NCBI GenBank assembly: GCA_030681195.1
Contig: JAUXXJ010000018.1
Location: forward strand, 1-64,000
Reading direction: 5' to 3'
DNA from: Rhodocyclaceae bacterium
GTDB taxonomy: Bacteria > Pseudomonadota > Gammaproteobacteria > Burkholderiales > Rhodocyclaceae
Length of the DNA stretch: 64,000 bases
The position numbers and the translations under genes were made by a program. This document shows positions 2,073 through 32,488 of the stretch, piece by piece; the first letter of the stretch is position 1, and every line of letters starts with the position of its first letter. The notes under the pieces were generated by a model that worked only from the letters and a program-made list of their open reading frames with translations, searched no databases and was not told where the DNA came from.

Positions 2073-2187
2073 GCAGACACAATGCCGCCTTAAGCGAATT
2101 CGCAATATTTCGCACAATGCTGGCTGTGTTGGGGCAGAACTGCACCAGCTTTTGTTTACCCTCGTCTTCGCGGAAAGGCTAACCTCC

Positions 2188-7033: not shown

Positions 7034-7174
7034 TTCAACCCCTAAAATATCCGACAACATCGATGGCGAAACTCATTCCCAGTTCACTGTCAATGGGCTA
7101 GTGATGAGATTGGTATGTGATTGACAAAAGGGCCATCGAACTTCCTTTTCGAGATGTATTTTGTCGCCCTACAA

Positions 7175-10054
7175 TCAAGGGCGAGGTCGTCTGGACGTAA
7201 GTTTTTCTAAGTACAAATTCACGCGAGGGAGTTCGACTTTGAACTGTTCAATCTTATGTTGACGACTTCTCACCCAGTCCGGCAGCTCGTTAGTGTTAGT
7301 CTTTTTAGCTTTCAAGCGCTCCATAAGCATCGCATATTGCCTTTGCCGGGTTATCCCTTGAATGCCAAGAATTTCCTCTAAGCACTTGAGCTCTTCGGGT
7401 ATGGGCGTCACGTGGGCCGCCGCGATGCTTATGTTGAAGGCATCGCCAAAGTAGATTTTTGGGAAATTCTCTTCAAGAAAACCATCATCGATAACAGACT
7501 GGCCCAAGAGGCACGCCCTCATAATTAAGCTTTGGAGCTCGCGCGCGTTCCCTGGCCATGAATACCTCAATAAACGCTTGCGGGCGGAAGCGTCAAGTCC
7601 AATCTGCATGGTTCTTTCATTCTTCGCCAAATCCCTGTTGATCCGATCAAAAATACACTCTATGTCCTGCGGGTGCTCTCGGAGAGGTGGAATTAAAAAG
7701 GGACTACCAAGCCGCATTTGAAGGTCAAGCCGGAAGGATCCGTCCGCAACCAAGTCCGATACTGGTTTGTTGCTGGCGGCAAGAACTACGCCCGCATACT
7801 CAATAGTTTCTTGTTCCTCCTCCCCCAACGGGGAGAACTCGCCGTGTTCGATGACTGTTAGAAGCCGGAACTGCACTTCCAGAGGATAGGAGTTGATTTC
7901 ATTTAGAAAAACTGGCCGATGCTTCTTCTTCGCGATCCCGAAAATTCCGTCACGCCGGTTATCTGCTCCGGTGAACGAGCCTTTGGCATGTCCGAAAAGT
8001 TGCGTCAGGATGAATCGGGTATCCACTGTCACGCCGAAGCGAACGAATGGCGAATGGGCATGCCGGGCATCCAAATAGTCGATCAATTCATCTTTGCCAG
8101 ACCCAGTTTCCCCCTCCAAAAGCAGAGCAATTACCCGGTACGATTCGCTACGGGTCAGCTCCAAAGCCTTGCGGTAAACAGACTCGAGTTCGCCAACTCT
8201 TTTCGCAAGCGTCTCGTCATAGGTTACGAACTTTCCAAAGGTATGTATCCGTCTGCTTTTTCTTTCCGAAATGACGTTCGGGGAGGTAGCTTCTTTCGTT
8301 ACGCCGAAGGTTTTAAGGCGACCAGAGAGCTTTACTAGATCTGGTCGAACCCTGTCAAGAATGCTAGTTTTTGCGGCGACGGGCCAAAAGCGTACAAATG
8401 GCTCTGATGGGGAGTCTAATTGAGCAAGCCGGTCAATTACCTCGTCGCAAGTAATGACAACCTTATTCTCCAATATCGATCGAACGTGCTGGACTAGCAG
8501 AGTCATCGTTTCATCGGTCAAGTCGATGCTTTCCGGATCCCGCTCCGTCTCGCTGAAAAGGTGCTCGAGAAATTGCCGTGCTGGAAAGTCTCGTGCCTCA
8601 CCCTTATCTGCGTATAGGGCGAAAATATGCGATTCGCCAACAATGTCGAGTGCATGTGCTGCCCCAAGTTGTTCGGAGGCGAACTGTAGGGGGGTAACCG
8701 CCGAAGTAATCGAAATTACGGCGGGAGCCATCGCAAGCTCTTTAGCTACATCTGTCTCAAGTCCGTTACCTGATATTGAGAACGGATGTGAATCCACAAC
8801 CTGAACACCTTCCCTTCTTAATGCGGATACGCAATCTCTTCCGATTGTCCGATCATTGCTTAGTACGACGACTTTTCCTGGCTTGTCACTTGAATTCCGA
8901 TATCTTTCGATGTGCCTGAGGCACGACCACTTTCCCGGCCACGTCACATCGTCGGCCTTGAGTGCATCTTCGACCTTTTGGAGATTCGCGTCGACTTCGC
9001 CCCTGTCTTCCCCGCTCAGCGCCAAACGTGTCATCGCGTCTAGCGTGAAAGCCATTCCTGCAGTAACTCCGCCGGGAAGCGGGGGTAAGCGAATGTCTCC
9101 CTGAAAAAAATGCTCAGTGATTGGCTTCATGACTCTATCGCTTAGCTCCATCCGCAACTGATCGATAAAGTCATCACAAGTAAGAGCAAACCAAACGGCA
9201 GCTGAGTCGCGCTGGGATCGGTCACGCTTCTGGGAGAACCGAAGTAGGTATATGGACCTCGTCGCGTTGTTTGGTGGACCGTCGTACCGTGCTAGTTTCA
9301 CCTCGGTAAAGCCGAGCATCGAAACCAGAAAATCGCCGGGTTTAAGGGGAACGTCACGATTTACTTGCCCCCAGGCACCGCGAATCCGCGAATTCGAGAT
9401 CGCATGCAGGCGTTCGTTGATCTGCGCCGATGACAGCCATCTTAAGGCCCCTTTGTTCGGGCGCTCAAGAAGGGGTTTCCTTTGTCCCCGCTCATCGGCA
9501 ACAATGAATAGATCGTCGAAGGAGGGTGTTCCCCAAAGATTGCGGTCACTTCGAAGTTTTCGGAAGCGGTCTTGGTAATACCAGCAATCTAAGCGCTTTG
9601 CGGCATCAATCTCCAGGCGGCTGACCTTCCATCCATTCGATGAGTCGCGGTTTAGCTCGTCCAAAGAGGGATACATCCAAACGGATTCAACGGGCGATAC
9701 ACCATAGACAAAGACGCTGAAGGAATTGGGCTCGTCCATCGGTTTGTAGGATCGCTCTTGGTTACCCAACGGCGTGATGCGGTTTAGCGTCGGCGTGAAG
9801 AGCGCCATTCGGTACGCCCTATATTCCTCGACCAGTTCTTTGCCGGACTTTTTGCGAGTGGCGTCGCACAGCACCCTATCCTGCACGAAGACCCGAATGG
9901 GTTGCGATCGTGGCCTGCTAAGAACGGTCAGTAAGTCATCTGGAGAGCCAGGTAACGACGTTTCGGTCCGCCACGCATCTGGATTGCCTGTAGCTACTTC
10001 GTCGATCCGCAGTTCTAGTAACTTCCGGTTCTTTTCATCAAGAAGGAAATCCAT
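7175..10054 (-). CDS. TIR-like / sigma-54 AAA+ activator fusion
   Basis: 959 residues. Residues 1-~390 are unrecognised. Residues ~392-510 ('KVVVLSNDRTIGRDCVSALRREGVQVVD' ... 'VISITSAVTPLQFASEQLGAAHAL') follow the alternating strand/helix order of a TIR-like or Rossmann nucleotide-binding fold, with a Glu where TIR enzymes place the catalytic one; this call is tentative. Residues ~640-870 are a sigma-54 interaction AAA+ domain: Walker A GETGSGKD (~648), a GSFTGA version of the sigma-54 contact loop GAFTGA (~695), Walker B 'VFLNEI' and 'YSWPGNARELQ'. The C-terminus is basic but lacks an obvious Fis-type helix-turn-helix. It is divergent from the nucleotide operon whose promoter matches sigma-54, so I infer it activates that operon on sensing a signal through its N-terminal part. 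Confidence 0.7.
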   Translation of the reverse strand: MDFLLDEKNRKLLELRIDEVATGNPDAWRTETSLPGSPDDLLTVLSRPRSQPIRVFVQDRVLCDATRKKSGKELVEEYRAYRMALFTPTLNRITPLGNQERSYKPMDEPNSFSVFVYGVSPVESVWMYPSLDELNRDSSNGWKVSRLEIDAAKRLDCWYYQDRFRKLRSDRNLWGTPSFDDLFIVADERGQRKPLLERPNKGALRWLSSAQINERLHAISNSRIRGAWGQVNRDVPLKPGDFLVSMLGFTEVKLARYDGPPNNATRSIYLLRFSQKRDRSQRDSAAVWFALTCDDFIDQLRMELSDRVMKPITEHFFQGDIRLPPLPGGVTAGMAFTLDAMTRLALSGEDRGEVDANLQKVEDALKADDVTWPGKWSCLRHIERYRNSSDKPGKVVVLSNDRTIGRDCVSALRREGVQVVDSHPFSISGNGLETDVAKELAMAPAVISITSAVTPLQFASEQLGAAHALDIVGESHIFALYADKGEARDFPARQFLEHLFSETERDPESIDLTDETMTLLVQHVRSILENKVVITCDEVIDRLAQLDSPSEPFVRFWPVAAKTSILDRVRPDLVKLSGRLKTFGVTKEATSPNVISERKSRRIHTFGKFVTYDETLAKRVGELESVYRKALELTRSESYRVIALLLEGETGSGKDELIDYLDARHAHSPFVRFGVTVDTRFILTQLFGHAKGSFTGADNRRDGIFGIAKKKHRPVFLNEINSYPLEVQFRLLTVIEHGEFSPLGEEEQETIEYAGVVLAASNKPVSDLVADGSFRLDLQMRLGSPFLIPPLREHPQDIECIFDRINRDLAKNERTMQIGLDASARKRLLRYSWPGNARELQSLIMRACLLGQSVIDDGFLEENFPKIYFGDAFNISIAAAHVTPIPEELKCLEEILGIQGITRQRQYAMLMERLKAKKTNTNELPDWVRSRQHKIEQFKVELPRVNLYLEKLTSRRPRP

Positions 10055-10107
10055 TAGAGCACCAAAGGCAAAAGGAATACCCTTATCTTATCAGGAAAAT
10101 CCTTGTA

Positions 10108-10158
10108 CAAATATCAGGAAGTGCCAGCATTGATATTTGCATCATTTGTTTAATATCA
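10108..10158. promoter_or_regulatory. Three half-sites at 21-bp spacing, putative activator sites
   Basis: The heptamer AATATCA occurs at 10110-10116, its inverse TGATATT at 10131-10137 and AATATCA again at 10152-10158, each exactly 21 bp apart (two helical turns). The first pair is the core of a 9-bp perfect inverted repeat, CAAATATCA (10108-10116) / TGATATTTG (10131-10139). They lie about 50-100 bp before the start expected from the sigma-54 promoter at 10185, the usual place for enhancer-binding activators. The partner is probably the divergent AAA+ protein. Confidence 0.6.
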
Positions 10159-10184: not shown

Positions 10185-10200
10185 TGGCGCGCAATGTGCT
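10185..10200 (+). promoter_or_regulatory. Sigma-54 (-24/-12) promoter
   Basis: TGGCGCG-CAAT-GTGCT matches the sigma-54 consensus TGGCACG-N4-TTGCW with two changes. The essential GG and GC dinucleotides are kept at the correct spacing. It faces rightward, 89 bp ahead of the glycine-zipper gene, with a sigma-54 AAA+ activator encoded divergently. Confidence 0.75.
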
Positions 10201-10288
10201 AATACCTTTGTGCTGTAGTTCCAAGGTTGCGGTTATTCCCTCTGTACGCACCTTGATTTATTTAGACGGAAAACATTTGGAGATCAAA

Positions 10289-10774
10289 ATGAGTGATGAA
10301 AACTTGAAGGTTGCAGCAAGTACCGCAGCTGGTGGTGGTGTTGGAACAGCAGGATCAATAGCGGCTGTCTCAACGCTGGGGGCGGTTGAAGGTTTGTCAG
10401 CCGCAGGTATAACTTCTGGTTTGGCTGCTCTTGGAAGTCTGGTCGGCGGTGGTATGGCAGCAGGAGTTGGAGTTGCAGCAGCTCCAGTTCTTGCTGGCGG
10501 AGCACTAGCAGCCGCACTCACAAGTAACAACGTCGAAACAGATGAAAAAATTGCGGCAGGCCTAGGTGCCGGTGCAGGTATAGCCGGTTCGGTAGCAACT
10601 GTTTCGGCTGCGGGTGCCGTGGGTGGATTGTCAGCAGCAGGCATAACCTCTGGGCTCGCTGCTATTGGGGGAGTAGTCGGTGGCGGTATGGCAACAGGCG
10701 TAGCCATAACCTGCGCAGCACCCCTCGCAGTGGCTGGAGGTGTATACGCGCTGTATAAGTGGTTTAAGGACTAA
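10289..10774 (+). CDS. Duplicated glycine-zipper hydrophobic protein
   Basis: 161 residues from ATG 10289 (GGAG 6 bases upstream; upstream in-frame starts would lie in the promoter leader). Almost entirely Gly, Ala, Val, Leu and Ser. It consists of two homologous halves (~8-75 and ~88-150), each containing 'GLSAAGITSGLAA(L/I)G' followed by a GGGMA stretch, ending with 'YALYKWFKD'. No cleavable signal is evident. Glycine-zipper repeats pack transmembrane helices and occur in pore-forming or membrane-disrupting proteins, so a membrane effector or small anchor is possible. It is the first gene after the sigma-54 promoter and is separated by 133 bp from the next gene. Confidence 0.7.
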   Translation: MSDENLKVAASTAAGGGVGTAGSIAAVSTLGAVEGLSAAGITSGLAALGSLVGGGMAAGVGVAAAPVLAGGALAAALTSNNVETDEKIAAGLGAGAGIAGSVATVSAAGAVGGLSAAGITSGLAAIGGVVGGGMATGVAITCAAPLAVAGGVYALYKWFKD

Positions 10775-10907
10775 ACAGCTATCCCGGCAGTCAATGCGGA
10801 CCCTGCGCGATATCAGCGATGTGCCACTCGCAAATCTATTTCTTATCGTGGTCGGAGTTGTGCGATTGGCTAGTCCCATGAATATGGAAAGTCGGCTGTG
10901 ACACCAA

Positions 10908-11828
10908 ATGAATAGTTGTAACTTTAATCGTCCATGGCATGGAACGCTCGTGGATGCTCATCGCCACGGGCTTTACGATCTATCCTCAGACTGGAGCCTT
11001 GGTGGGCTGCCTGTCGAGCAATGGTCAAACGACCCCAGATTTCTCGCTCATGAGCGTCGGACGAAGTGGTTATTTGGCGACGAGCTTCGCGATGCCCTTC
11101 AGCCATGGATCGAATACTCGCGAGATGAGGGCGTGGGGACGGTACTCGACTTTAGTGGCAAGCACGCAAGCGCGGATGTGGAATATGTTTACGGGACATT
11201 CGGAGTGCGATCTAAAGTCACGGTACTCTGGAATTCTTGGAGATCGGATATCCGACCGACTCCGACGGTGATGATTCTTCCCGATGAGCGGGAGATTGGA
11301 ACCGAAGCGGCCGAAGCTGCGCGAGTATTCCTCAAGTCGATGCCAGGCGGTCTGATTACGCTGCATGCAGGGGAATCCGAGGCACGAACCAGAATCGGAA
11401 AATCCCGCTTGGGGCAGTCGATCGTCGAATGGCTGGCCAAGGAGTCCCTATTGGATTCGCGTACGCTGCTGGTCCACGCGAATACGCTGAACTCTAACGA
11501 TTTTGGTTTGATTGAGGATAGCGGTGCAGGTGTGGTCATGTGCCCTTTCACGAGGTCCGCACTCTTCAATCCTGCTCCGACAGTACCTCAACGCGTGCGA
11601 GTCTTTTTCGGAACCGATGCTCCATTGGTATCCGGAAATCGAAGCCTAATAGCCCAAGCCGTTGCTGAGGCCGGGCGGTGGATAGCCTACGGATATCCCG
11701 AAATAGTCGCTGCGGAGCGCGCGGCGATTGCACTGACGCGACCGCTAACGGGCGAACCGTGGGAAGTTTCTGGAATGGCATCCGACTTGGCCGAATTTCT
11801 GTTTAACGACCTGATTAGGGAGAAGTAA
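10908..11828 (+). CDS. Amidohydrolase-family (deaminase-like) enzyme
   Basis: 306 residues. The metal-ligand series of the amidohydrolase superfamily is complete and in order: 'DAHRHG' (HxH, ~17-22), 'TLHAGES' (His and the acid/base Glu, ~150), 'LLVHANTL' (~190) and 'FFGTDAP' (Asp, ~235). The HAGE-type motif is that of adenosine-, cytosine- or MTA/SAH-deaminase-like members, so a nucleobase or nucleoside deaminase is the best guess; the substrate is unknown. It is followed after one base by the thymidylate-synthase-like gene, implying one transcript. Confidence 0.7.
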   Translation: MNSCNFNRPWHGTLVDAHRHGLYDLSSDWSLGGLPVEQWSNDPRFLAHERRTKWLFGDELRDALQPWIEYSRDEGVGTVLDFSGKHASADVEYVYGTFGVRSKVTVLWNSWRSDIRPTPTVMILPDEREIGTEAAEAARVFLKSMPGGLITLHAGESEARTRIGKSRLGQSIVEWLAKESLLDSRTLLVHANTLNSNDFGLIEDSGAGVVMCPFTRSALFNPAPTVPQRVRVFFGTDAPLVSGNRSLIAQAVAEAGRWIAYGYPEIVAAERAAIALTRPLTGEPWEVSGMASDLAEFLFNDLIREK

Positions 11829-11829
11829 T

Positions 11830-12441
11830 TTGGGTGCAACCGGCCAAATAGCCAGACCACTGAGCGAAACTTGGAAAAATCTTCTCCGGCTTGTTATGGA
11901 GCACGGCGATGACACCGATCTGGAGATCAGGGAGGCTAGGACGGTGACTATGGATTTCACGGTCGAGCCTTCGGACATTACCGAACTGGCGGATTACGGA
12001 CTCAAAGAAACATTGTCCGAAATGCGCAAAGTTTTTTTCACGTCCGAAAAAAACCGATTTGGGCATAGCTACAGATCATGCTGGCGGGGGCCCTTCGGAA
12101 GAGAAGACCTCACTGACGTAATAGATTTGTTGAAGGAACAGCCGTCGACGAAGCGGGCGCTATTCGTATTCATCGATCCGACAGGGAAGAAGGTTCCATG
12201 CGTCAATGCAATACATTTCCTCATCCGCCATGGACGCTTGGATCTGAGTTATTTCGCGCGGGGACAAGACGTCTATCTAAAGTTCTGTGCAGATGCAATC
12301 TGCGTACACGATTTCGGCGCCCTGGTTTCCGAGGCTCTCGGCATCAGGGTCGGAACAATTACCGGCACCATAAGCTCAGCCCATATCTATCGGAAAGATT
12401 TTGAGCGAGTCGAATCCATACTCAATCCGGCACGAAGATGA
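11830..12441 (+). CDS. Thymidylate-synthase-like protein, maybe cytidylate-specific
   Basis: 203 residues from a TTG start directly after the deaminase-like gene. The C-terminal two thirds align by eye with the thymidylate synthase fold: 'VPCVNAIHFLIRHGRLDLSYFARGQDVYLKF' carries the catalytic cysteine (C124) and the phosphate-binding Arg and Asp (R144, D147), though the usual Ser beside the Arg is Gly. 'GTISSAHIYRKDFERV' carries the nucleotide-binding His and Tyr (H185, Y187). The position of the substrate-selecting Asn (N177 in E. coli) is D155, the change known from dCMP hydroxymethylases. It is shorter than the usual ~264 residues, with a reduced N-terminus. It probably alkylates a pyrimidine nucleotide. 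Confidence 0.65.
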   Translation: MGATGQIARPLSETWKNLLRLVMEHGDDTDLEIREARTVTMDFTVEPSDITELADYGLKETLSEMRKVFFTSEKNRFGHSYRSCWRGPFGREDLTDVIDLLKEQPSTKRALFVFIDPTGKKVPCVNAIHFLIRHGRLDLSYFARGQDVYLKFCADAICVHDFGALVSEALGIRVGTITGTISSAHIYRKDFERVESILNPARR

Positions 12442-13811
12442 CGATAAGAAAAATTCTATTCGTAGTGCCGCGCTCGCTGAATCCCAAGCAAATGTATAAG
12501 GAATACCCGCTCGGCGTTGGATTTATCGGTACGATACTTCAAGAGCGAGGCTACGATGTGGCGGTTTTCGATCAAAACGCCGAGGGAGGGGACGAGAGCC
12601 TTCTTTGGGAGCGGGTGTCCTCATTTGAGCCGGACGTGGTCGGGTTCTCCATCATCACCCCAAATTATCCGGTGGCGCGCCTTCAAATTGCGGAAATGAA
12701 GCGCCGTCATCCCGAGATGGTCGTTATTGCAGGCGGCATCCACGTAAATCTGTTCCCCAACGATGTATTGTCGGACGGGGTTGACGTTGCGGTGCTCGGT
12801 GAGGGCGAATACACCGTATACCGATTGCTAGAGGCGCTTGGCGCTGGCCGTCCGCTTGCGGATATCCAAGGAATAGCGTTTGCGGATAACGGATCGGTAC
12901 GCTTGAACCCCAAAGATCCGCGTCCATTGAGTATCGACGAGTTGCCGATTATCGATCGCAGCCTTTACCGTCTGGAGCTATACAGTCATCATTCGATGGT
13001 CGCCTCGCGTGGTTGCCCATACGACTGTACCTTCTGCTGCAACTATACGGGCACTGTACTGGTAAAGGGTGTCGCAATTTGCGGGCACGAGCGGGTTATT
13101 CGGGAAATGGCGGTTCTTGAGAAGGATTTCGGCGCGAAGGAAATATTTTTCGCCGATGACATCTTCTTTTTGAAGAAGAAAAGCATCGTAACGTTTTGTG
13201 AGGAATATGCCGCGAATGACCTCAGCGCATCGTGGATCGGCCAGTTGAGGGCTGACTCGATGGATTCGTCCGTTGCCGAGGCGATGGCGTCGGCTAATTG
13301 CCGACGGGTTTATTTCGGGATAGAAAGTGGCTCCGATGAGATTTTGAATCGGGCTAGCAAACGAACGACCGTCGAAAAGATGCTCTCCGGGGTTCAATCC
13401 GCTTCCAATGCCGGTATACGGGTCAAAACCGGATGGATTTACGGCCTTCCCGGTTCCTTGGCAGAACAGCGGAAATCTGTCGATCTCATGCTACGTATGC
13501 GTCCCCATGAGATATCAATCCATCAGCTGATCCCATTTCCGGGAACTGCCTACTACTCCCGCCCACAGGATTTCGGTATCAGGATAAAAGACCCGAAGGA
13601 TTTCGAGAGCTTTTGCTATGGCGGCATAGGCGACAATATATCGTTCGAATATATGTCGCCGTCGGAAATGATCGCGCTGCTCGAGGAAACAGCAACCGCC
13701 TTGGAGCGTGAAGGCTACGTGAGCAGCGACATTGCAACGCCGGAGGACGAGTTCGTCTTCTCCTCCCCGTTACACCAAAAGTCAATGAACGTATTCAGAA
13801 AGAAGTCGTAA
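12438..13811 (+). CDS. B12-binding radical SAM enzyme
   Basis: 457 residues, overlapping the previous gene by 4 bases (ATGA). Residues ~1-140 form a cobalamin-binding-like Rossmann domain ('YPLGVGFIGTILQERGYDVAVFDQN', 'VVIAGGIHVNLFPNDVL', 'VAVLGEGEYTVYRLLEAL'). The radical SAM domain follows with C193-PYD-C197-TF-C200, the CxxxCxxC that binds the 4Fe-4S cluster, and 'GIESGSDEILNRASKRTTVEKM', typical of this subgroup. Such enzymes often methylate unactivated carbons or rearrange skeletons. In this operon a nucleotide or its modified base is a likely substrate, but nothing in the protein proves it. It is not a viperin-type enzyme, which lacks the B12 domain. Confidence 0.8.
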   Translation: MTIRKILFVVPRSLNPKQMYKEYPLGVGFIGTILQERGYDVAVFDQNAEGGDESLLWERVSSFEPDVVGFSIITPNYPVARLQIAEMKRRHPEMVVIAGGIHVNLFPNDVLSDGVDVAVLGEGEYTVYRLLEALGAGRPLADIQGIAFADNGSVRLNPKDPRPLSIDELPIIDRSLYRLELYSHHSMVASRGCPYDCTFCCNYTGTVLVKGVAICGHERVIREMAVLEKDFGAKEIFFADDIFFLKKKSIVTFCEEYAANDLSASWIGQLRADSMDSSVAEAMASANCRRVYFGIESGSDEILNRASKRTTVEKMLSGVQSASNAGIRVKTGWIYGLPGSLAEQRKSVDLMLRMRPHEISIHQLIPFPGTAYYSRPQDFGIRIKDPKDFESFCYGGIGDNISFEYMSPSEMIALLEETATALEREGYVSSDIATPEDEFVFSSPLHQKSMNVFRKKS

Positions 13812-13825
13812 TTAAGGTTTTGACC

Positions 13826-15526
13826 ATGAAATATCTTGAATTAAATTCCGTAGATGTAATGGCCACTATCGGTCCCACGCTGGAGACGGCGGAAGGCATA
13901 GCCTTGGCTATTGATGCCGGAGCGGGATGGTTCCGATTCCCAACGGGCTACCGCAACCGGGATCATATCGCGCATGCCCTGCTCGTTCGGGAGGTGGCTG
14001 AAAGCAAGGGGACTGACGTAAAAATCCTCTTCGATCTTCCGTCGGAGCGCTTGAGGCTCGGTCGTATCTCCCCGCGGGAGGTTGCGCCAGGGGTCGAACT
14101 TTCATTTTTCGACTCCGACGGAGAGTGTTCAGGCGATCATGTCGGGGTTCCGGGGCTGAACAAACTCCAAGGGGCTGTCACACCAGGTCATCGCGTCTTG
14201 GCGCTTGACGGCCGGATTGTCCTGCGGGTTCTGGATTTTTCCTCCGGACTCATGCGTACCGTCGTTGAGCGTGGAAGCGGTCGGTTGCAAACCAGTAACT
14301 CGGTCGTCTTTCCAGATAGCAGTGCCGATTTTTCCTTGTTTGAATCAGCCGATGTCGAGCTGTTGCGCAAAGCGGAGGCCGCTGGTCTCGTCCCGGACTG
14401 GATAGCGCTTTCCATGGTGACGTCGGTCGGGCAATTTAATTCGGCCGTAGCGGCCCTGCGGGAGTTTTTGCCGAATTCGGTTCGATTCATGGCCAAGTTG
14501 GAAACGAGGGAAATCATCCTCAACAGCTTGGGGATCGTCCAGGCTTCGGACGGCATCATGGTCGCCCGCGGCGATCTCGGCCTGGTGGTCGAGCCGGAAG
14601 ATATGCCGCAAATCCAAGAGAGGCTTGTCGAAATTGCCAAAGCGAAAGGGAAGCCCGTCATCGTGGCTACCCAATTCCTGGAAAACTTCGCCTCAAGCGG
14701 CGTGCCTCAGCGTTGCGAGTTGACCGATCTCGCCACCGCAGCGTGGCAAGGTGCGTCGGGGATAATGCTCGGCAAAGAGACCGTCTTTAGCGACCATCCG
14801 ATCGAGAGCATCGAGCTCGCGACCCGATGTCTGAAGGCTGCCTCCCGGATTCGCCTGCCTATTGGCTTGTTCCTACGCGAACCACGGAATTTATTTCCGG
14901 GAGGCTCGTCGCCGCTAATTGCCATCGAAGGGGGCAACGGGGTGGGGAAAACGACACTCATTGAGCGTCTCCGGGCAACGCACCCCGACTGGACGATTCG
15001 CCGGGGGGTGCCAGACGCATGGATGGAGCCGCAAATGAAAATGCGGATGATCCGAGATGCAGACTGGATGGCGTCTGCCTTTTATTTCTTTTCGGGTTCC
15101 ATGGAGCTCAAACGCGAGCTGATGCAATTTATTCAACGGCAAGTTTCGCCACCGAAAATATGCCTGGATCGTAGTCTTTGGTCGACCCTTGCGGTACAGG
15201 TGGGCCACGATCCGAAACGCTTGGCGAAATTGATGCCGATACTCGAGTTAATGGGTGGCCACATTTGCGTGCCGAACAAAACCGTTGTTCTGACTGCATC
15301 GCCCGAAACGTTGCGGCAACGAGTCTCGGAAAAGGAACTATCCGAGCGCGTATTCGACGAGCTAACCCAAAATTATGATTATTGGGAACGGGAATCTGCC
15401 TTTTACCATTGGTTGCGGGAGGCTGTCGCCGAGGTGGGATTGCCGCAATTTCAGGTCGAACTTGTGAATACCGACAACCTGTCGTCTGAAGAAGTCGTCG
15501 AATACGTTGGTAGGTTAATTTCATGA
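13826..15526 (+). CDS. Pyruvate-kinase-like / thymidylate-kinase-like fusion
   Basis: 566 residues from ATG 13826 (AAGG 7 bases upstream; TTG 13820 is an alternative). Residues 1-~350 resemble the pyruvate kinase barrel: 'MATIGPTLETA', 'FMAKLETREI' (catalytic Lys), 'GIMVARGDLGL', 'VIVATQFLENF' and 'CELTDLATAAWQGASGIMLGKET'. The nucleotide-binding R-x-N-x-S-H-G box is altered to R-F-P-T-G-Y-R-N, and the C-terminal regulatory domain is missing. In its place residues ~360-566 are a thymidylate-kinase-like P-loop domain (GGNGVGKTT, 369-377; 'CLDRSLWS'). I know of no standard enzyme with this architecture. It could phosphorylate a modified nucleotide, with the barrel recycling NTP from PEP or acting on a phosphoenol group. 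Confidence 0.7.
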   Translation: MKYLELNSVDVMATIGPTLETAEGIALAIDAGAGWFRFPTGYRNRDHIAHALLVREVAESKGTDVKILFDLPSERLRLGRISPREVAPGVELSFFDSDGECSGDHVGVPGLNKLQGAVTPGHRVLALDGRIVLRVLDFSSGLMRTVVERGSGRLQTSNSVVFPDSSADFSLFESADVELLRKAEAAGLVPDWIALSMVTSVGQFNSAVAALREFLPNSVRFMAKLETREIILNSLGIVQASDGIMVARGDLGLVVEPEDMPQIQERLVEIAKAKGKPVIVATQFLENFASSGVPQRCELTDLATAAWQGASGIMLGKETVFSDHPIESIELATRCLKAASRIRLPIGLFLREPRNLFPGGSSPLIAIEGGNGVGKTTLIERLRATHPDWTIRRGVPDAWMEPQMKMRMIRDADWMASAFYFFSGSMELKRELMQFIQRQVSPPKICLDRSLWSTLAVQVGHDPKRLAKLMPILELMGGHICVPNKTVVLTASPETLRQRVSEKELSERVFDELTQNYDYWERESAFYHWLREAVAEVGLPQFQVELVNTDNLSSEEVVEYVGRLIS

Positions 15527-16770
15527 TGCGGAAAAACATTCCTCTCGTAACCTCCAATCTAGCGAAGTACGCGCTTTTTCAGCCAATCCTGGAAAGGCTT
15601 GGCGTTGAATTGGTTACGCCGCCTCAATCCTGTCACGAAATTCAATCAGACGACTGGGTTGAAATCATCAAGGAGAAGGCCCGCGCTGCGGCACGATCCC
15701 TCGGTCGTCCCTGCATCGTGGACGATGCAGGACTCTTGCTCGATGCCTACCCCGGGTTCCCGGGTGCTTATACGAAGTCGATAATCCAATCGCTTGGAAG
15801 CGATGGGTTGATCAGGCTTCTTAATAATCAAACCCCATCCGGGTGTCTCGTCGCGAATCTGGCATGTTCTGACGGCGTCGAATGTCTTCACTGGATGGGG
15901 AGCGTTCAAGGCAACCTTGTCCCGAGCGAATTTCGCGGCGAAGGCCCCGGGCCGCTCCACGAGTGGTTCCAACCGAGAGCCAATGGGCCTTTTGCCAAGT
16001 CACTTCATCGATTAAGGGCTTGGCAGGCGCTGGAGCGCGATTGGCAGCTTTTATGCGATAAGGGATGGGCTTACCCGGCCGACGACGATCCGTTTTGCTA
16101 CACACTGGAGCCGACCTCTGGTTCGTGCGTGTTCTGCGTTGAACTCTCTGGCGACTGCGGTTCGATTTTTGAACAACTATCAGGTGGTTTGCCGAGGGAC
16201 AGGGTAGTGCATATGAGCACATCGTTTGTGCTCTTGCCACCGTTGGGCCAGTTCATGGAGGGTGGGTTGTTGCTTCTCACCCGTAAGCACGTGAAAAGCA
16301 TGGCGCACCTTGAAACTGGCCAAGTTTCAGAATTGGAAGATCTGATATCGGAGGTGACGACGACAATCCGTGGAGCATATGGCTCAAATCCGGTTGTTTT
16401 CGAACATGGGCCTGGGCGAGGAAGGGGGAAATCTACGTGCTGCGTTGATCACGCGCATCTGAATATTTTTCCGGCGGATGTGGATTTAATGCCACTCCTT
16501 AGCCAATTTCCTGGCCATGAAATCGGTTCGCTTAGTGATCTCGCCTCGCTGCGTGACAATTCCGATGATTACATATACGTTCAGCATGGAAACGGCACAC
16601 GCACAGTCCATTTCTCTGAGGACTTCCCGTCCCAATTCATTCGCCGTGAAATCACTAGGCAACTCGGATATCCGGAGCGTTGGCATTGGCGGGACTATCC
16701 GGGGATTGCAGAACTACGCACCACGTACGACAGGTTTCAGGGAGCGTTCGCCGAACATGTCTCTTTCTGA
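15523..16770 (+). CDS. HAM1/RdgB-like pyrophosphatase fused to HIT domain
   Basis: 415 residues; ATG 15523 overlaps the preceding stop by 4 bases, and a second ATG follows at 15526. Residues ~5-165 resemble the HAM1/ITPase family: 'VTSNLAKYALFQPIL', 'VEIIKEKARAA' and 'PCIVDDAGLLLDAYPGFPGAYTK'. These enzymes hydrolyse non-canonical (d)NTPs to monophosphates. Residues ~200-345 look like a HIT domain: 'CVFCVEL', then 'CCVDHAHLNIFP', where H310-A-H312-L-N314 replaces the third His of HxHxH by Asn, so the hydrolase may work differently or be inactive. Both halves act on nucleotides, which fits removal of a toxic or modified nucleotide, perhaps as self-protection. Such a fusion is unusual. Confidence 0.7.
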   Translation: MMRKNIPLVTSNLAKYALFQPILERLGVELVTPPQSCHEIQSDDWVEIIKEKARAAARSLGRPCIVDDAGLLLDAYPGFPGAYTKSIIQSLGSDGLIRLLNNQTPSGCLVANLACSDGVECLHWMGSVQGNLVPSEFRGEGPGPLHEWFQPRANGPFAKSLHRLRAWQALERDWQLLCDKGWAYPADDDPFCYTLEPTSGSCVFCVELSGDCGSIFEQLSGGLPRDRVVHMSTSFVLLPPLGQFMEGGLLLLTRKHVKSMAHLETGQVSELEDLISEVTTTIRGAYGSNPVVFEHGPGRGRGKSTCCVDHAHLNIFPADVDLMPLLSQFPGHEIGSLSDLASLRDNSDDYIYVQHGNGTRTVHFSEDFPSQFIRREITRQLGYPERWHWRDYPGIAELRTTYDRFQGAFAEHVSF

Positions 16771-17443
16771 ATATCTCTACGGCATTCCCGAGAGCGATCC
16801 CGACTTGTATGCCACACGTGACATAGACGCTATTGCCCGTCGCTGGGACTCCAAGGCCGCTCTATGGGACTTAGACTTGGAAGACAAGTCCGGTCACCTT
16901 AATGACAACGACGCTTACGGGCGCTTCATCGAATTGGGAAGACGGCTGGTGCTGGATCGGCAGAAACAGTGCTCGACGGGCAGCCTAGTCGATCTGGGCT
17001 GTGGAACCGGAGCCGTGCTCACCGAATTCTCCACGTATTTCGATAAATCTATCGGAATCGACATAAGCCAAGAAATGCTGAATGTCGCGGCATCGAAGTG
17101 CATTCGGAACGCGGAATGGTGCTTGGACGATGTTTTCGAGGGGGCCTGGTGCCGACGTAAGCACATCGCAGTGCTTTCCCGGGGGATCCTGCTTTCACAC
17201 TACGGTGAAATATTGGCGCAACTGCTAATCGCACAGACCGTGAAGGCGCTCGCTCCGGGCGGATTCGCGCTATTTGACTTCCTTTCCACGGAAGCGCCGG
17301 AGGCTAGCAAGATACTCGCGCCCAACAAGACGTATTTCTGTCCAGAGTGGCTCATTACCCAAGCAAAGCTCTTGGGTTCAAGAGGTGCCGTCGTTGCAGG
17401 AAGCCCAATTGACAGGGTTCGTTATTTGATCCTGAAAGATTAG
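16757..17443 (+). CDS. Class I SAM-dependent methyltransferase
   Basis: 228 residues from ATG 16757, which overlaps the end of the HAM1-HIT gene by 14 bases. The upstream in-frame extension lies inside that gene and was rejected. Motif I is 'LVDLGCGTG' (~77-85), followed by 'SIGIDISQEML', an acidic strand end, and 'ALAPGGFALFDFLS'. This is the UbiE/Methyltransf_11-like fold for small molecules. It is the last gene of the sigma-54 operon, so a modified nucleoside or a related product is a reasonable but unproven substrate. Confidence 0.75.
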   Translation: MSLSEYLYGIPESDPDLYATRDIDAIARRWDSKAALWDLDLEDKSGHLNDNDAYGRFIELGRRLVLDRQKQCSTGSLVDLGCGTGAVLTEFSTYFDKSIGIDISQEMLNVAASKCIRNAEWCLDDVFEGAWCRRKHIAVLSRGILLSHYGEILAQLLIAQTVKALAPGGFALFDFLSTEAPEASKILAPNKTYFCPEWLITQAKLLGSRGAVVAGSPIDRVRYLILKD

Positions 17444-17501
17444 TGAGTATTCGCCGACAGCGCATATGGCAACAACCAGCCAACAAACAGGAGAAGGGTC
17501 C

Positions 17502-18222: not shown

Positions 18223-18687
18223 ATGCAGTACACCAACGCCAACACCTTGCCCATTGAATTTGTGCGCGACATCTTCGCCTCCCTGTCTGGATCGAATGTA
18301 GCGGACTTCGATGAAGCCGACTTTGCCGAATTACCTGCTCAATGCCCGGTAAGCGCGACGTTCGGTATTTCACATAGCCTCAATGATATTGAGGATGCCG
18401 TCAGTTCGGCCTTTCCATACCCGGCAGGCACCCAGCGTGACGCCCTTGTCGCGGTGCACTGCAACGGACTGGACATGACACGCTACCAAGCCTTGTCGGA
18501 CGCCTTGCGCCGGAAGGTGCCTGGCTCGCTATTCATCAGTGTGAACCCCAAAAGTAACACTCTGCCTCCAGGCACTGCCTCGATCATCCTTCTTGCCATT
18601 TCGCCAGGGAACAAAACCAAGAAGCCGCTGAGTCATCCCTACCTGAAATTGGTTGTCGAAGGTGAATCCAAAGGGCAACCGAATTAG
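18223..18687 (+). CDS. Hypothetical protein
   Basis: 154 residues from ATG 18223 (GAGA ~10 bases upstream; ATG 18208 is equally possible). Contains 'LPIEFVRDIFASLSGSNVADFDEADFAELPAQCPVSATFGI' and 'VPGSLFISVNPKSNTLPPGTASIILLAISPG'. No domain recognised, no signal peptide. It lies between a hypothetical gene and a PcfJ-like gene in the same direction. Confidence 0.55.
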   Translation: MQYTNANTLPIEFVRDIFASLSGSNVADFDEADFAELPAQCPVSATFGISHSLNDIEDAVSSAFPYPAGTQRDALVAVHCNGLDMTRYQALSDALRRKVPGSLFISVNPKSNTLPPGTASIILLAISPGNKTKKPLSHPYLKLVVEGESKGQPN

Positions 18688-18778
18688 CGATGAACAGCAA
18701 TGTCAAGGGCGAAATCCCAGTCGCTGTATCCGGGGCCTAGCCATCGCGGTAACCATATCACCCGCCAGCGAGCAACCT

Positions 18779-20182
18779 ATGTCTAGTTCTTCTGACTCTT
18801 GCCAGTACTGGATCCTCCATCAGGATCCTATGGTGAGGCGCAATCGGCTTCAAGCGATGAATGACTTCCCTATCGTCGCAGCTGCCGTGATCAATTCATT
18901 TCATACCCCCCGCGATCCTGTCCTTCACACATTACAGTCGGTCATCGACAAAGGCGAGCCGCTGATCAGCTCGCTGTCGCGGTTGGCGGGGGTGACCAAA
19001 GGAAGCATTCGTGCATTGCGCGGTGTAAAGCCTGGCGATGATGCTGGCCCTGTCAATCTAGTACTTCTCTTGCGAGCCTTGGACAAGATTACTCCCGACA
19101 AGCGTCCGCGTGATGGCAACAAGTGGCAACTCTTTGAGAATCTGCTGCGCTGGGCAGAGGGAGAGCGCAGTCGGATAATCGATTCGCCGAAATACTCAGA
19201 AGACCTGGCGACACATATCGTGGCTGGCCTGATGGCGGCGGGCGAAACACAGATCGTACGTTGGATCGGCCACAATTTGGAACTTTTGGATGGCATCGAT
19301 GATTATCTGGATTACGCCGGCTTGTGGTGTGCAACTGGTGCAGGCGGGGAGGTTGTCAGTTCCGCATACGTGAAGTCCCGTGCTCGCCGGACCGTTCGAG
19401 ATGCATTGATGATGCGTTACCCAGCAAAAGAAATCCTGCGGCAGGTGAATTGCTGGCACAAGGAAATAAACAACCCGGCAAACAGCCTGCCACTGGATAC
19501 ATCGGTCCCGGACGAGTGGCCAGCTTTGCCGGGTTTGCCTCATGTCTGCGGTGACCTGACGATCGTGTCGCTGACCAGCAATAGCCAATTGATTGCCGAA
19601 GGAATGCAGCTTAAGCATTGTGTTCGGGTTTATACCGACTCATGCTGGTCAGGAGCGAGACATATCGTGTCCATCCGGGATGCTGCTGGGCAAAGCCTGT
19701 CCACCGCAGAACTGTCGATTTCTGAAACCGCTGATTTCCGATATGACCTCTCCGTAGATCAGCATCATTCCTTCGCGAATGGAATGCCTTCCCAAGCATG
19801 CACCACTGCCTTGGCCGACTACATGCAATCAATAGCCAGTGATGAGGCGCAGGCCGATCTGGAGGAAGTGTGTGAATTCCATCAGTTTCGCCGGGGGGAA
19901 TTGGGGGAATCAGGACTTTGCGACGATGGACGTTCTGCATCCATGGTGAGCAACATCATGCGAAAGATTCTGTCTGACTACGACTGTGCTAGAGATTGGC
20001 TGCTGGACCAGCTCGATATCGAAGATACCTGGTACCGGCTCGACAATGAGCGCGCAGCCAAGGCGCTGAGTAAATTCCGCTTGGACGAGACCTTGTCGGA
20101 TAAGGATGCATTCGAGCTTGCATGGGACACAGGGCAGTGGGAATGCATGGATGCTGGACTGCGCCCAGCAATGGAAAGATAA
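18779..20182 (+). CDS. PcfJ-like mobile-element protein
   Basis: 467 residues from ATG 18779; earlier in-frame starts overlap the previous gene. The central-to-C-terminal part (~270-370) has the PcfJ pattern: 'GMQLKHCVRVYTDSCWSGARHIVSIRDAAGQSLSTAELSIS...VDQHHSFANG', i.e. M-x-HCV-x2-Y-x-C-x2-G-x3-I-x-S-I. PcfJ-like proteins are common on conjugative plasmids and integrative elements, and their function is unclear. A tail of ~100 residues ('WLLDQLDIEDTWYRLDNERA') is extra. Confidence 0.65.
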   Translation: MSSSSDSCQYWILHQDPMVRRNRLQAMNDFPIVAAAVINSFHTPRDPVLHTLQSVIDKGEPLISSLSRLAGVTKGSIRALRGVKPGDDAGPVNLVLLLRALDKITPDKRPRDGNKWQLFENLLRWAEGERSRIIDSPKYSEDLATHIVAGLMAAGETQIVRWIGHNLELLDGIDDYLDYAGLWCATGAGGEVVSSAYVKSRARRTVRDALMMRYPAKEILRQVNCWHKEINNPANSLPLDTSVPDEWPALPGLPHVCGDLTIVSLTSNSQLIAEGMQLKHCVRVYTDSCWSGARHIVSIRDAAGQSLSTAELSISETADFRYDLSVDQHHSFANGMPSQACTTALADYMQSIASDEAQADLEEVCEFHQFRRGELGESGLCDDGRSASMVSNIMRKILSDYDCARDWLLDQLDIEDTWYRLDNERAAKALSKFRLDETLSDKDAFELAWDTGQWECMDAGLRPAMER

Positions 20183-20233: not shown

Positions 20234-20404
20234 TCAACTACTGCCCTGAGAATACCGATCCTCCAGCATCCCCAGAATCTCATCCACCATCTTCGTCCCC
20301 CGCATCGCGCACGCCGCTTTGATACGCGCATGCAGCCCGGCCGGAATATCCAGCGTCAGCCGCTTCTTGGGTTCTGTCTCTGGTTGGCGGGGGGGACAGT
20401 ACAC
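20234..20404 (-). pseudogene. Remnant of a ribbon-helix-helix partition-type gene
   Basis: The leftward frame encodes 'PKKRLTLDIPAGLHARI' and 'KAACAMRGTKMVDEILGMLEDRYS' before a stop at 20234. This is the C-terminal ribbon-helix-helix domain seen in small plasmid-partition/ParG-like proteins. Upstream the frame runs into a stop (complement of ~20419) with only GTG candidates, so the normal N-terminal half (about 30-40 residues) is missing. It is probably a 5'-truncated fragment left by rearrangement. Confidence 0.5.
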
Positions 20405-20452
20405 TACCACCGCAGCACATTGCTAACATTGAACATTCGTAAGGATATTGTC

Positions 20453-21307
20453 ATGCTGGGTATTGAGAGCGTAAATTTCGATGCCGACGAGCGCGATGTG
20501 AAAGGCGCGAACACGGAGGATGCCGGGCTCAAAATCCTTGCAAATGTTGCGAAGGCTTCGAGAAGGCAAATCAAGGTTGTCGAGCGCGTGGCACCTGGGA
20601 ATGTCGGGGAGTTCGATGCCATCTGTTGCACGGACTCCGGCATTTACTTCATCGAGATGAAACGCCTCGGCGGGAAGTTTGGCGAATTCTCCATGCTAGA
20701 TCGACAGATTCGGCTGTCCGCAGGTCGGCAAGAAAAAGTCATACCGAATCCGGCCTTGAAGTTCAAACACAAGGTGGATCGGCTGATCGCTGAGGAATTC
20801 AACACCAGCGAAAACTGGAAAGTGGTCAAACGCCTGTTCTCAGGGCATGTTCCGGTTCATTCCATACTATGTTTCGGACCGTCAACAAGCTTCGAGGAAG
20901 GAATCCCGGTATCAGAGAAAAACATCACCATTTGCACTACCCGGACGCTGGGCAAAACCCTGAAGGATATTCATTCAGAGCGTGAACAAGTTTTCGGCGT
21001 CGGGTCGCAAATGGCGGCTCTGGTGGAATTCTGGCCGCGTTGGGGAATACTCACGATGACCGGCAAGCGGGGTTTCTTCCGGTGCAGCATTTCAAAGATT
21101 GGGCAGGGTAGAAGCGATGCCACTGTCTGGGGGCTTACAGCGCTCGAGTCTGATGGGGCTCGTTTGAAATATACCTATGGTAAAGATCGCAAGAGGACTA
21201 CCGCATTCGATGAACTCGTTTTATTGCGCGCCTACCATGACGGAAGCGAGCGAGCCATTGGCATCGAACCCGGCACTCGCTTCCGCTGGCGTATCATGGG
21301 CCGCTAG
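20453..21307 (+). CDS. NERD-domain (nuclease-related) protein
   Basis: 284 residues from ATG 20453 (AAGGATAT just upstream). The first ~130 residues fit the NERD domain: 'DAGLKILANVAKASRRQIKVVERVAPGNVGEFDAICCTDSGIYFIEMKRLGGKFG', with the GEFDxx...E-x-K core of restriction-like nucleases. The remainder is unrecognised and ends with 'ERAIGIEPGTRFRWRIMGR'. NERD proteins are linked to DNA processing on plasmids and in defence loci. It follows a truncated gene and precedes a short hypothetical gene. Confidence 0.6.
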   Translation: MLGIESVNFDADERDVKGANTEDAGLKILANVAKASRRQIKVVERVAPGNVGEFDAICCTDSGIYFIEMKRLGGKFGEFSMLDRQIRLSAGRQEKVIPNPALKFKHKVDRLIAEEFNTSENWKVVKRLFSGHVPVHSILCFGPSTSFEEGIPVSEKNITICTTRTLGKTLKDIHSEREQVFGVGSQMAALVEFWPRWGILTMTGKRGFFRCSISKIGQGRSDATVWGLTALESDGARLKYTYGKDRKRTTAFDELVLLRAYHDGSERAIGIEPGTRFRWRIMGR

Positions 21308-31573: not shown

Positions 31574-32488
31574 ATGACGAGCGAAACACAGGACATCGAA
31601 TCTCTGGCCAAGCAGGTGGAATCCCATCCGGACTATCGGGTGTTGCGTCGCTTGAAACCGCGAACGGAGTTTTCTGTTCAAGCCAAGGGCGCCATCGCAC
31701 GCGGGGTCGTGGTTGATACGGAGACTACCGGTACCGATCCCTCCGCCGACGAGATCATCGAGATCGGCATGGTTGTTTTCGAATACGACACGGCAACCGG
31801 GTACGCCTTGCGTGTCGTCGATACCTACGATGCGCTGGAGCAGCCAAGTCATCCCATACCTCCCGAAGTCACGCAAATTCACGGCATCACCGATGCGATG
31901 GTGGTGGGTAAGCGAATCGATGATCAGCGCGTGGCCAGCATGCTTGGAAACGTCACCTTGGTGGTGGCACACAACGCTGCATTTGACAGGCAGTTTCTTG
32001 AGCGTCGGTTGCCAATTTTCGCGAACGTAGCGTGGGGATGCTCTTTCAAGGAAATTCCTTGGTCCCTTGAAGGCTATGGGTCGGCAAAGCTGGATTACAT
32101 CCTCAACGTAATGGGGTATTTCCATGAGGCCCATCGGGCAGAGGCGGATTGTCTTGCATTGCTCGAAGTGTTGCAGATGCCTTTGCAAACCACGGGTATG
32201 TCGGCATTTGCGGCGCTGACGAAATCGGCAAATGTGGCTGGGTATCGTATCTGGGCCAGAAACAGTCCCTTTGACAACAAGGATCGCCTGAAGGCGAGGG
32301 GCTATCGCTGGGCAGCGCCTGAGAAGTGCTGGTATCTGGATAGCACAGAAGCAACGTTGGCCGCCGATCTGTCATTGCTCAAGATCGAGGGATACAACAG
32401 CAAGCCCGCGAAAGTTGAGCTTGAGAAACTCGACGCGACTATCAGGTACTCGAAACGTGGTGGCGAGAGGGAAGTCAGGCTGATATGA
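31574..32488 (+). CDS. DnaQ-like 3'-5' exonuclease
   Basis: 304 residues. DEDDh exonuclease: ExoI 'GVVVDTETTGTDPSADEIIEIGMVVFEY' (~46-73), ExoII 'LVVAHNAAFDRQFLERRLP' (~135) and ExoIII 'AHRAEADCLALLEVL' (~183). The last ~100 residues ('SAFAALTKSANVAGYRIWARNSPFDNKDRLKARGYRWAAPEKCWYLD') are an accessory domain seen in exonucleases of mobile elements. It is the last gene before the gap that I take as the element boundary. Confidence 0.82.
   Translation: MTSETQDIESLAKQVESHPDYRVLRRLKPRTEFSVQAKGAIARGVVVDTETTGTDPSADEIIEIGMVVFEYDTATGYALRVVDTYDALEQPSHPIPPEVTQIHGITDAMVVGKRIDDQRVASMLGNVTLVVAHNAAFDRQFLERRLPIFANVAWGCSFKEIPWSLEGYGSAKLDYILNVMGYFHEAHRAEADCLALLEVLQMPLQTTGMSAFAALTKSANVAGYRIWARNSPFDNKDRLKARGYRWAAPEKCWYLDSTEATLAADLSLLKIEGYNSKPAKVELEKLDATIRYSKRGGEREVRLI

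What the first reader, a model, noticed from the sequence alone, without database searches (positions are those of the whole stretch)
13826..15526. Pyruvate-kinase-like barrel fused to a thymidylate-kinase-like domain
The kinase domain replaces the pyruvate kinase regulatory domain, and the barrel has an altered nucleotide-binding box while keeping the catalytic Lys and the GDLG region. One protein could phosphorylate a nucleotide and recharge NTP from PEP, or the barrel may have a new reaction.
Basis: partly seen in the sequence, partly recalled or inferred. Interest (0 to 1): 0.75.

Follow-up and report, generated by a model that had tools for sequence, protein, structure and literature searches.

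The report
PEP-powered nucleotide kinase in mobile cassette
A mobile DNA element carries a rare two-in-one enzyme, a rewired pyruvate kinase barrel joined to a nucleotide kinase, inside a cassette of nucleotide-modifying enzymes that looks more like a defence or toxin module than ordinary sugar metabolism; what it makes is untested.

Summary
Window 13826-15526 (+) encodes one 566-aa protein: a pyruvate-kinase (PK) barrel (residues 9-329, E 2e-39) followed by a P-loop nucleotide kinase domain (365-561) in place of the PK C-domain. It is no assembly join: two other genomes carry it intact (81% and 93% identity), and dN/dS is 0.10-0.16 in each half. Twelve of twelve PEP/Mg/phosphoryl-site residues checked are kept; ten conserved positions on the acceptor side are replaced in all three fused proteins. 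The host also has an ordinary PK.

The fusion is the fifth gene of an operon in a ~10.3-kb cassette among conjugation genes: divergent sigma-54 activator, small Gly-rich membrane protein (a non-homologous one in one genome), amidohydrolase, thymidylate-synthase relative with CMP-hydroxymethylase residues, B12-radical-SAM enzyme, PK-kinase, Ham1-HIT, methyltransferase.

Best reading: the cassette makes a modified cytidine nucleotide; the kinase half takes NMP to NDP and the barrel probably charges NDP to NTP from PEP; purpose probably anti-invader, as messenger or poison. All reactions are inferred; a changed barrel reaction remains open. New architecture, new variant of nucleotide-based systems.

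The parts
7175..10054 (-). Sigma-54 activator (bEBP), 959 aa; C-terminal AAA+ domain of RtcR/NorR type, N-terminal ~620 aa of unknown fold (likely sensor, inferred)
   Evidence: Sigma54_activat E 5.7e-28; PADLOC RtcR_PspF2 3.2e-45 over residues 611-862 only; no PDB or Pfam match up to E 1 for residues 1-620; conserved in L003 and L004
10043..10105 (.). AGGAAAnTCCTT-like repeats beside the regulator start, candidate activator sites (the copy at 10092-10105 is by eye)
   Evidence: alignment A6; copies 29 bp apart in window and L004, 20 bp apart in L003 and L004; AAGGAANNTCCTTA with 1 mismatch at 10072, the only other place in the window being an overlapping pair at 32047-32061; mean 0.14 expected
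10185..10199 (+). Sigma-54 (-24/-12) promoter candidate TGGCGC-N5-GTGC
   Evidence: 17.5/20 on an ad hoc score; same aligned place in L003 (20/20) and L004 (18.5/20, where another site scores 19.0); 16 + strand sites of at least 17 in 64 kb
10289..10774 (+). Small Gly/Ala-rich membrane-type protein, candidate effector; homologue in L003, non-homologous Gly-rich gene at the same place in L004
   Evidence: BnzA E 8.5e-7, 2e-10 for the longer ORF from 10196; L004 protein hits PDC-M09A 2.9e-13; 0 of 10 shuffled controls hit; 5, 4 and 3 hydrophobic segments in window, L003, L004 by a crude scan; no Pfam match
10908..11828 (+). Amidohydrolase of the deaminase type, 306 aa, with HRH, HAGES, LLVHAN and GTDA motifs
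   Evidence: HutF E 1.5e-7 and guanine deaminase E 4.2e-7, far below cut-offs; motifs at the same places in 3 of 3 cassettes; PDB 4dyk E 0.029 only; no Pfam match
11830..12441 (+). Thymidylate-synthase relative, 203 aa, with CMP-hydroxymethylase-type residues K108, G145, D155, C124, H185, Y187
   Evidence: PF00303 2.6e-11; methanogen TS TIGR03283 1.1e-19, below cut-off; PDB best TS 6auj 3.7e-8, then MilA 5b6d 4.3e-8; residues invariant in 3 of 3; roles from PMC5175136 and PMC6400193
12438..13811 (+). B12-binding radical SAM enzyme, 457 aa
   Evidence: B12-binding 1.1e-19, Radical_SAM 4.5e-15
13826..15526 (+). The fusion, 566 aa: PK barrel (residues 9-329) plus dNK/TMPK-type kinase (residues 365-561)
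15523..16770 (+). Ham1 (NTP pyrophosphatase) domain fused to a HIT-like domain with HxHxN
   Evidence: Ham1p_like 1.3e-16; best PDB match KomB 8zsg E 1.5e-11; HIT half has no Pfam match of its own but aligns with 5 distant proteins, one of which, in L033, hits Pfam HIT and DcpS_C
16757..17443 (+). SAM-dependent methyltransferase, 228 aa (start set by the L003 and L004 orthologues)
   Evidence: Methyltransf_25 6.1e-10; orthologues L003:12929, L004:9844

Best explanation
A sigma-54-controlled mobile cassette builds and activates a modified cytidine ribonucleotide. Proposed path: the TS relative hydroxymethylates CMP at C5; the B12-radical-SAM enzyme, the methyltransferase and the amidohydrolase tailor it (order unknown); the C-terminal kinase half of the fusion phosphorylates the modified NMP to NDP with ATP; the PK barrel, whose acceptor side has changed, transfers the phosphoryl group of PEP to that NDP, giving the NTP without host NDK and leaving pyruvate. 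Ham1-HIT cuts or transfers the NTP (control, immunity or read-out). The product serves anti-invader defence, either as a signal for the exchangeable membrane protein or as a polymerase poison. Shown here: domains, residues, gene order, promoter-like motif, conservation, extent of the shared block, and a different small gene in L004. Inferred: every reaction, their order, induction and the defence role.
For: Fused protein conserved and constrained in three genomes. Twelve of twelve checked PEP/Mg/phosphoryl-site positions kept, each invariant in 28 of 28 other PKs. Host has a separate PK and ThyA, so this is not core metabolism. TS relative carries the Asp that marks cytosine-type enzymes and the Lys of ribo-type enzymes. 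Ordinary PKs take several NDPs, and B. subtilis PK and Ndk complement each other in NTP making (PMC11980595, passages). Kinase domain's best PADLOC match is VakA (E 2.4e-6; viperin-associated kinase by recall). Ham1's best PDB match is KomB of Kongming. Small membrane-type gene hits BnzA or PDC-M09A and differs in L004 while the enzymes stay. The cassette lies between conjugation genes, with defence genes in the window.
Against: Positions recalled as ADP, K+ or base contacts are replaced in the barrel (N75P, S77G, H78Y, K207N); K207 and N75 should matter for any NDP, so the acceptor may not be an NDP. The barrel is diverged everywhere: of 83 near-invariant PK columns 48 are kept and 34 replaced in all three, so the ten acceptor-side changes are not clearly enriched. 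AlphaFold models failed (pLDDT 36.9 and 34.9). No phenotype is known. VakA (2.4e-6) and BnzA scores are weak; PDC-M51A (2.8e-16) is a general radical SAM resemblance, and PDC-M51B rings in 263 of 369 genomes. The TS relative's best family model is methanogen thymidylate synthase, not a hydroxymethylase, and its catalytic Glu was not located. No named defence system was matched as a whole.
Confidence: 0.42

Rival explanations
1. The barrel still activates PEP or pyruvate but does another reaction: PEP-dependent phosphorylation of a different acceptor (for example the 5-hydroxymethyl group), or enolpyruvate/aldol chemistry on the modified nucleotide. The kinase half only makes the NDP.
For: PEP/Mg side fully kept while acceptor-side positions are replaced in all three proteins. 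The stem of the fused barrels is very long (7.19 changes per column against a median tip of 0.34), consistent with a changed function.
Against: R73 and R120 equivalents, recalled as handling the transferred phosphate, are kept; barrel and NMP kinase sit in one chain, which suggests consecutive phosphorylations. Long stems also come from plain age.
Confidence: 0.25
2. The cassette is a specialised-metabolite (nucleoside antibiotic) cluster, or makes a modified nucleotide to be put into DNA, not a defence system (not exclusive of the barrel readings).
For: CMP hydroxymethylases are known from mildiomycin and bacimethrin, dCMP ones from T4 DNA modification. One relative of the HIT half lies in a biosynthesis-like cluster of Rhizobium pRL1 with a TMPK-like kinase, by eye.
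Against: Pfam recognised no transporter, polymerase or glycosidase among the cassette genes (three stretches match nothing). A different small membrane-type gene in L004, a large sensor-like sigma-54 activator and the place among conjugation genes look more like a conflict module.
Confidence: 0.25
3. The PK barrel is a dead scaffold or a PEP sensor, and only the kinase domain works; or the kinase domain senses modified nucleotides of an invader, as PMC10853773 proposes for the P-loop kinase of DndF (passages).
For: Loss of conserved acceptor-side residues; the DndF precedent is itself a prediction.
Against: All checked residues of the chemical step are kept and dN/dS of the barrel (0.15-0.16) is like that of the kinase (0.10-0.14). 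P-loop and DR motif of the kinase are intact.
Confidence: 0.13
4. Sequencing, assembly or chance fusion of a pyk fragment with a tmk fragment.
For: None found.
Against: Same intact fusion in three genomes at 81-93% identity with non-matching surroundings; barrel does not group with local PKs.
Confidence: 0.01

Closest known systems
Pyruvate kinase (PF00224, TIGR01064)
   Same: Barrel plus B domain; K270, E272, D296, T328, R73, D113, R120 equivalents; best solved match 7oo1 E 2.2e-40
   Different: No C-domain; acceptor-side positions replaced; below the TIGR01064 cut-off (186.9 against 306.4 bits); fused kinase
Deoxynucleoside kinase / thymidylate kinase P-loop family
   Same: P-loop GGNGVGKTT, DRS motif; dNK Pfam just above cut-off
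   Different: Very divergent; best PDB match only E 0.036; at E 1e-7 found in 1 of 398 genomes of the phylum sample, the own one
MilA/BcmA CMP hydroxymethylase and T4 dCMP hydroxymethylase (neighbour gene)
   Same: Cys nucleophile, Asp for cytosine, Lys for ribose, His/Tyr pair
   Different: 203 aa; best family model is methanogen TS (TIGR03283 E 1.1e-19); Gly where MilA has Ala176; N-terminal part not aligned
Kongming (KomABC)
   Same: A deaminase-type enzyme, a Ham1 protein and phosphorylation of a modified nucleotide to the triphosphate (the last is inferred here)
   Different: No SIR2 NADase found; kinase and PK are encoded in the cassette rather than borrowed from phage and host; TS relative, B12-radical SAM and HIT added
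Viperin with its nucleotide kinase (pairing recalled)
   Same: Radical SAM enzyme beside a nucleotide kinase; a nucleotide triphosphate analogue as the proposed product
   Different: Radical SAM is of the B12-binding kind, not viperin; extra TS relative, PK barrel and Ham1-HIT

Membership tests
Pyruvate kinase | PK barrel above the curated score | tested here: met
   PF00224 136 bits, cut-off 30
Pyruvate kinase | Residues of PEP/Mg binding and phosphoryl transfer (roles recalled) | tested here: met
   R37, D70, R77, K224, E226, A247-R248-G249-D250, T282 in 3 of 3 fused, same as 28 of 28 PKs
Pyruvate kinase | ADP and K+ contacts N75, S77, H78, K207 (roles recalled) and their neighbours | tested here: not met
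   these four, and G116, P117, K118, G208, N210 and S362 equivalents, replaced in 3 of 3 fused; each the same in 27 or 28 of 28 PKs
Pyruvate kinase | C-terminal regulatory domain / full-length equivalog score | tested here: not met
   TIGR01064 186.9 against cut-off 306.4, match ends at residue 340
Pyruvate kinase | Makes pyruvate and NTP from PEP and NDP | not testable with these tools
   needs an assay
dNK (PF01712) | Curated Pfam score | tested here: met
   29 bits, cut-off 27; narrow margin
Thymidylate kinase | Curated score | tested here: not met
   PF02223 21.8 against 27; TIGR00041 25.1 against 83.25
CMP hydroxymethylase (window 11830-12441) | Asp for cytosine (MilA D186), Lys for ribose (K133), no Ser at 176, Cys nucleophile, His/Tyr | tested here: met
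   D155, K108, G145, C124, H185, Y187 by alignment to 5b6d, invariant in 3 of 3; roles in PMC5175136
CMP hydroxymethylase (window 11830-12441) | Catalytic Glu (MilA E68) and activity | tested here: inconclusive
   N-terminal part not aligned; no assay
Kongming | Ham1-like KomB | tested here: inconclusive
   Ham1 domain best matches KomB (E 1.5e-11) but keeps VDDAGL where KomB has VEHTGL
Kongming | SIR2-type NADase KomC | tested here: not met
   no such domain in the Pfam scans of the cassette genes
Viperin | Viperin-type radical SAM protein | tested here: not met
   the only PADLOC match of the radical SAM protein at E 0.01 is PDC-M51A; B12-binding domain present

The most novel reading that the evidence does not exclude
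A new, self-contained nucleotide-based immune system: an inducible mobile cassette makes its own non-canonical cytidine triphosphate, energised by PEP through a PK-kinase fusion and so independent of host NDK and of ATP for the last step, and the product triggers an exchangeable membrane effector, with Ham1-HIT as off-switch or sensor.
Probability: 0.27. Interest if true: 0.87.

Novelty: new variant of a known kind. Interest (0 to 1): 0.64.

Why it matters
If the barrel charges NDP from PEP, one protein turns a modified NMP into its NTP without host NDK, a step that Kongming leaves to phage and host kinases. If the barrel does something else, it is a PK fold with new chemistry. Either way the cassette gives a compact, testable set of genes for a possible new non-canonical nucleotide on a mobile element.

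Tried and rejected
Structure: both AlphaFold jobs, each on a 3-sequence alignment, gave unusable models (pLDDT 36.9 and 34.9), so no fold search was run. Papers: searches for PDC-M51 and for viperin + nucleotide kinase + radical SAM + defense found none; the fusion and cassette searches listed 3, 7 and 3 papers, none of whose titles or abstract starts describe this architecture or gene set (open-licence PMC only); passages of PMC10853773, PMC12839542 and PMC10732462 were also read. PADLOC PDC-M51 was dropped as a label because the PDC-M51B model matches TMPK-like genes in 263 of 369 genomes, and in the own genome its match at 1e-10 is at C58, not the fusion. Kongming and viperin membership were rejected on missing parts. 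One viral-contig scan, which sees close relatives, gave none. tblastn of the amidohydrolase, the kinase domain and the two small proteins against plasmids found nothing; the TS relative found 14 records, the 12 listed all annotated thymidylate synthase; the radical SAM found 168 records (12 listed), all below 60% identity and not followed. Ham1-HIT found 97 plasmid records, 20 listed, of which 4 match in the HIT half; those 4 were opened. The TS relative was found in 1 of 369 genomes of the class sample, the own one, at E 1e-10. Whole-window sigma-54 pattern counts are no better than chance (68 found, mean 78.76 expected); only the aligned position in three genomes carries weight. Comparison with the genome's own TMPK failed: the translated stretch ran past stops and only a tail was aligned; not repeated. 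A first PK alignment had wrong frames for L006, L007 and L009 and was redone. Alignment A1 held a stray 3-residue row and was redone without it.

Full report
CHECK. The frame 13826-15526 (+) encodes 566 aa. Pfam finds a PK barrel at 9-329 (E 2e-39) and, at 365-561, a P-loop kinase best matched by dNK (E 1.1e-6), with Thymidylate_kin weaker and below its cut-off. NCBIfam PK models match up to residue 340, none reaching its cut-off. The genome has one further PK, at C44, over cut-off and with its C-domain, and a ThyA at C32 (E 4.4e-126).

REAL AND CONSTRAINED. A peptide-pattern scan of 84,980 species genomes, which sees close relatives only, found two others: Aromatoleum evansii KB740 (L004, 93%) and a betaproteobacterial MAG (L003, 81%). 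Both hold the full fusion. dN/dS is 0.15-0.16 for the barrel and 0.10-0.14 for the kinase part. Elsewhere: 53 of 61 genomes of the 'relatives' set, own included, gave matches; apart from the window's own protein they lie in the PK part, but for one weak match at 327-525. Of 172 plasmid and 21 phage records with matches, none covers 80% of the query. The kinase part alone was found in 1 of 398 genomes of the phylum sample, the own one, at E 1e-7, and the neighbouring TS relative in 1 of 369 of the class sample, the own one, at E 1e-10.

THE BARREL. I aligned the three fused barrels with 28 PKs of the window's order (8 loci). Rabbit numbering and residue roles are from recall. Kept in 3 of 3 and invariant in 28 of 28: P53, R73, D113, R120, K270, E272, A293-R294-G295-D296, T328, E364. 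Replaced by one and the same residue in the three: N75 to P, H78 to Y, G116 to S and S362 to G (each 28 of 28 in PKs); S77 to G, P117 to E, K118 to R, K207 to N and G208 to S (each 27 of 28). N210 (27 of 28) becomes V or I. So the side that handles PEP, Mg and the phosphoryl group is whole, and the acceptor side has changed. Caveat: of 83 columns that are the same in at least 27 of 28 PKs, 48 are kept, 34 replaced in all three and 1 mixed; the acceptor-side changes are ten of 34, chosen by recalled role, and the barrel is diverged throughout. The exceptions among the 28 are L008, L011 and L058, so single losses are not unique. A tree puts the fused barrels on a stem of 7.19 changes per column, far from local PKs: not a recent copy of the host gene.

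THE KINASE. P-loop GGNGVGKTT (369-377) and DRS (448-450) are invariant in the three. The best PADLOC family is VakA (E 2.4e-6), which I recall as a viperin-associated kinase; the best PDB match is a thymidylate kinase at E 0.036.

THE CASSETTE. From 10908 to 17443 the genes overlap or lie within 14 bases. Homology to L003 and L004 runs over about 7171-10116 and 10852-17444 and stops there in the sequence held; the left flank of L004 is only about 310 bases. Between these blocks L003 shares the small Gly-rich gene (10255-10774) and L004 does not: it has another Gly-rich gene there. The window's protein scores with BnzA and the L004 one with PDC-M09A; 0 of 10 shuffles score. The regulator has an RtcR/NorR-type AAA+ part, and its first 620 residues match nothing in Pfam or PDB up to E 1. 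A -24/-12 site lies at the same aligned place in all three (10185-10199; perfect in L003), downstream of AGGAAAnTCCTT-like repeats; the score is ad hoc and L004 has a higher site elsewhere (19.0).

NEIGHBOUR ENZYMES. The TS relative's best solved match is a thymidylate synthase (6auj, E 3.7e-8), then MilA (5b6d, E 4.3e-8). Its K108, G145, D155, C124, H185 and Y187 stand for MilA K133, A176, D186, C155, H216 and Y218 (my count on the printed alignment, offset 4). In PMC5175136 (passages) Asp186 marks cytosine enzymes and Lys133/Ala176 mark ribo-substrates; PMC6400193 (passages) says the same of Asp179 in T4 for dCMP over dUMP. So CMP is the likeliest substrate, although the best family model is methanogen TS. 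The amidohydrolase keeps HRH, HAGES, H and D motifs. Ham1's best solved relative is KomB of Kongming, a system in which a modified nucleotide, dITP, is the messenger (PMC12948488 and PMC12774641, passages). The HIT half has no Pfam match itself but aligns with five distant proteins; it was found in 1 of 398 other genomes of the order sample. In Rhizobium, Parabacteroides, two Streptomyces and G470 these relatives lie near nucleotide enzymes (ThyX, PRA-PH, dCTP-deaminase-like and others; partly by eye). The third His of HxHxH is Asn in the three cassettes, His in the other five rows.

SETTING. Part of the window is conjugative: TraI_2 just upstream of the cassette, TraU and TraN (and a TraW_N match just below its cut-off) downstream, and a phage-type integrase at 40182; ApeA/HEPN and HipA genes lie on this side, a TOTE primase-helicase and an AAA_21 protein of Abi type beyond the integrase, which may be outside the element. 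L003 looks like cargo of an integrative element by eye only; L004 cannot be judged.

MECHANISM. Best reading and rivals are given in their sections and are not all exclusive. Support for PEP charging of NDPs other than ADP comes from B. subtilis PK, which prefers GDP and complements Ndk (PMC11980595, passages). Against it stands the loss of K207/N75-type contacts. PMC10853773 proposes (passages) that a P-loop kinase in a defence protein senses modified phage nucleotides; that role cannot be excluded here.

NOVELTY. Of ten paper searches, the two aimed at the fusion and the one aimed at the gene set (96) list nothing that describes them, judged by titles and abstract starts and, for two of the listed papers, by passages; only open-licence PMC was searched. 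I rate it a new variant of nucleotide-based systems, with a domain architecture not seen in the collections searched.

Noticed in passing
window 46015-48627 (+) and 44826-46127 (-): TOTE-type primase-helicase (AEP-TOTE E 7.8e-99) beside an AAA_21 protein with a strong AbiLi PADLOC match (E 7.1e-101).
   Followed up: no
window 2011-3663 (+): ApeA N-terminal domain plus Apea-like HEPN protein, next to an ankyrin-repeat ORF.
   Followed up: no
L037 9962-12574 (genome G470): 870-aa protein beside a HIT relative; by eye it joins a PEP-synthase-like N-terminal part to a MazG-like part, another possible PEP link near this HIT subfamily (PADLOC found nothing; Pfam not run).
   Followed up: partly
L036 677-12413 (Rhizobium leguminosarum pRL1): Unannotated biosynthesis-like cluster: by eye TMPK-like kinase, PRPP-synthetase-like, PfkB, NifS-like, HIT, TrpD-like, methyltransferase and PhyH-like genes.
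   Followed up: partly
L033 5346-10051 (Parabacteroides distasonis): 539-aa ThyX-like protein, AAA protein with IetA-like PADLOC match, HIT and PRA-PH genes in a row.
   Followed up: partly
window 18653-20182 (+) and 20330-21307 (+): PcfJ-like protein and a NERD match just below its cut-off between the cassette and the tra genes.
   Followed up: no
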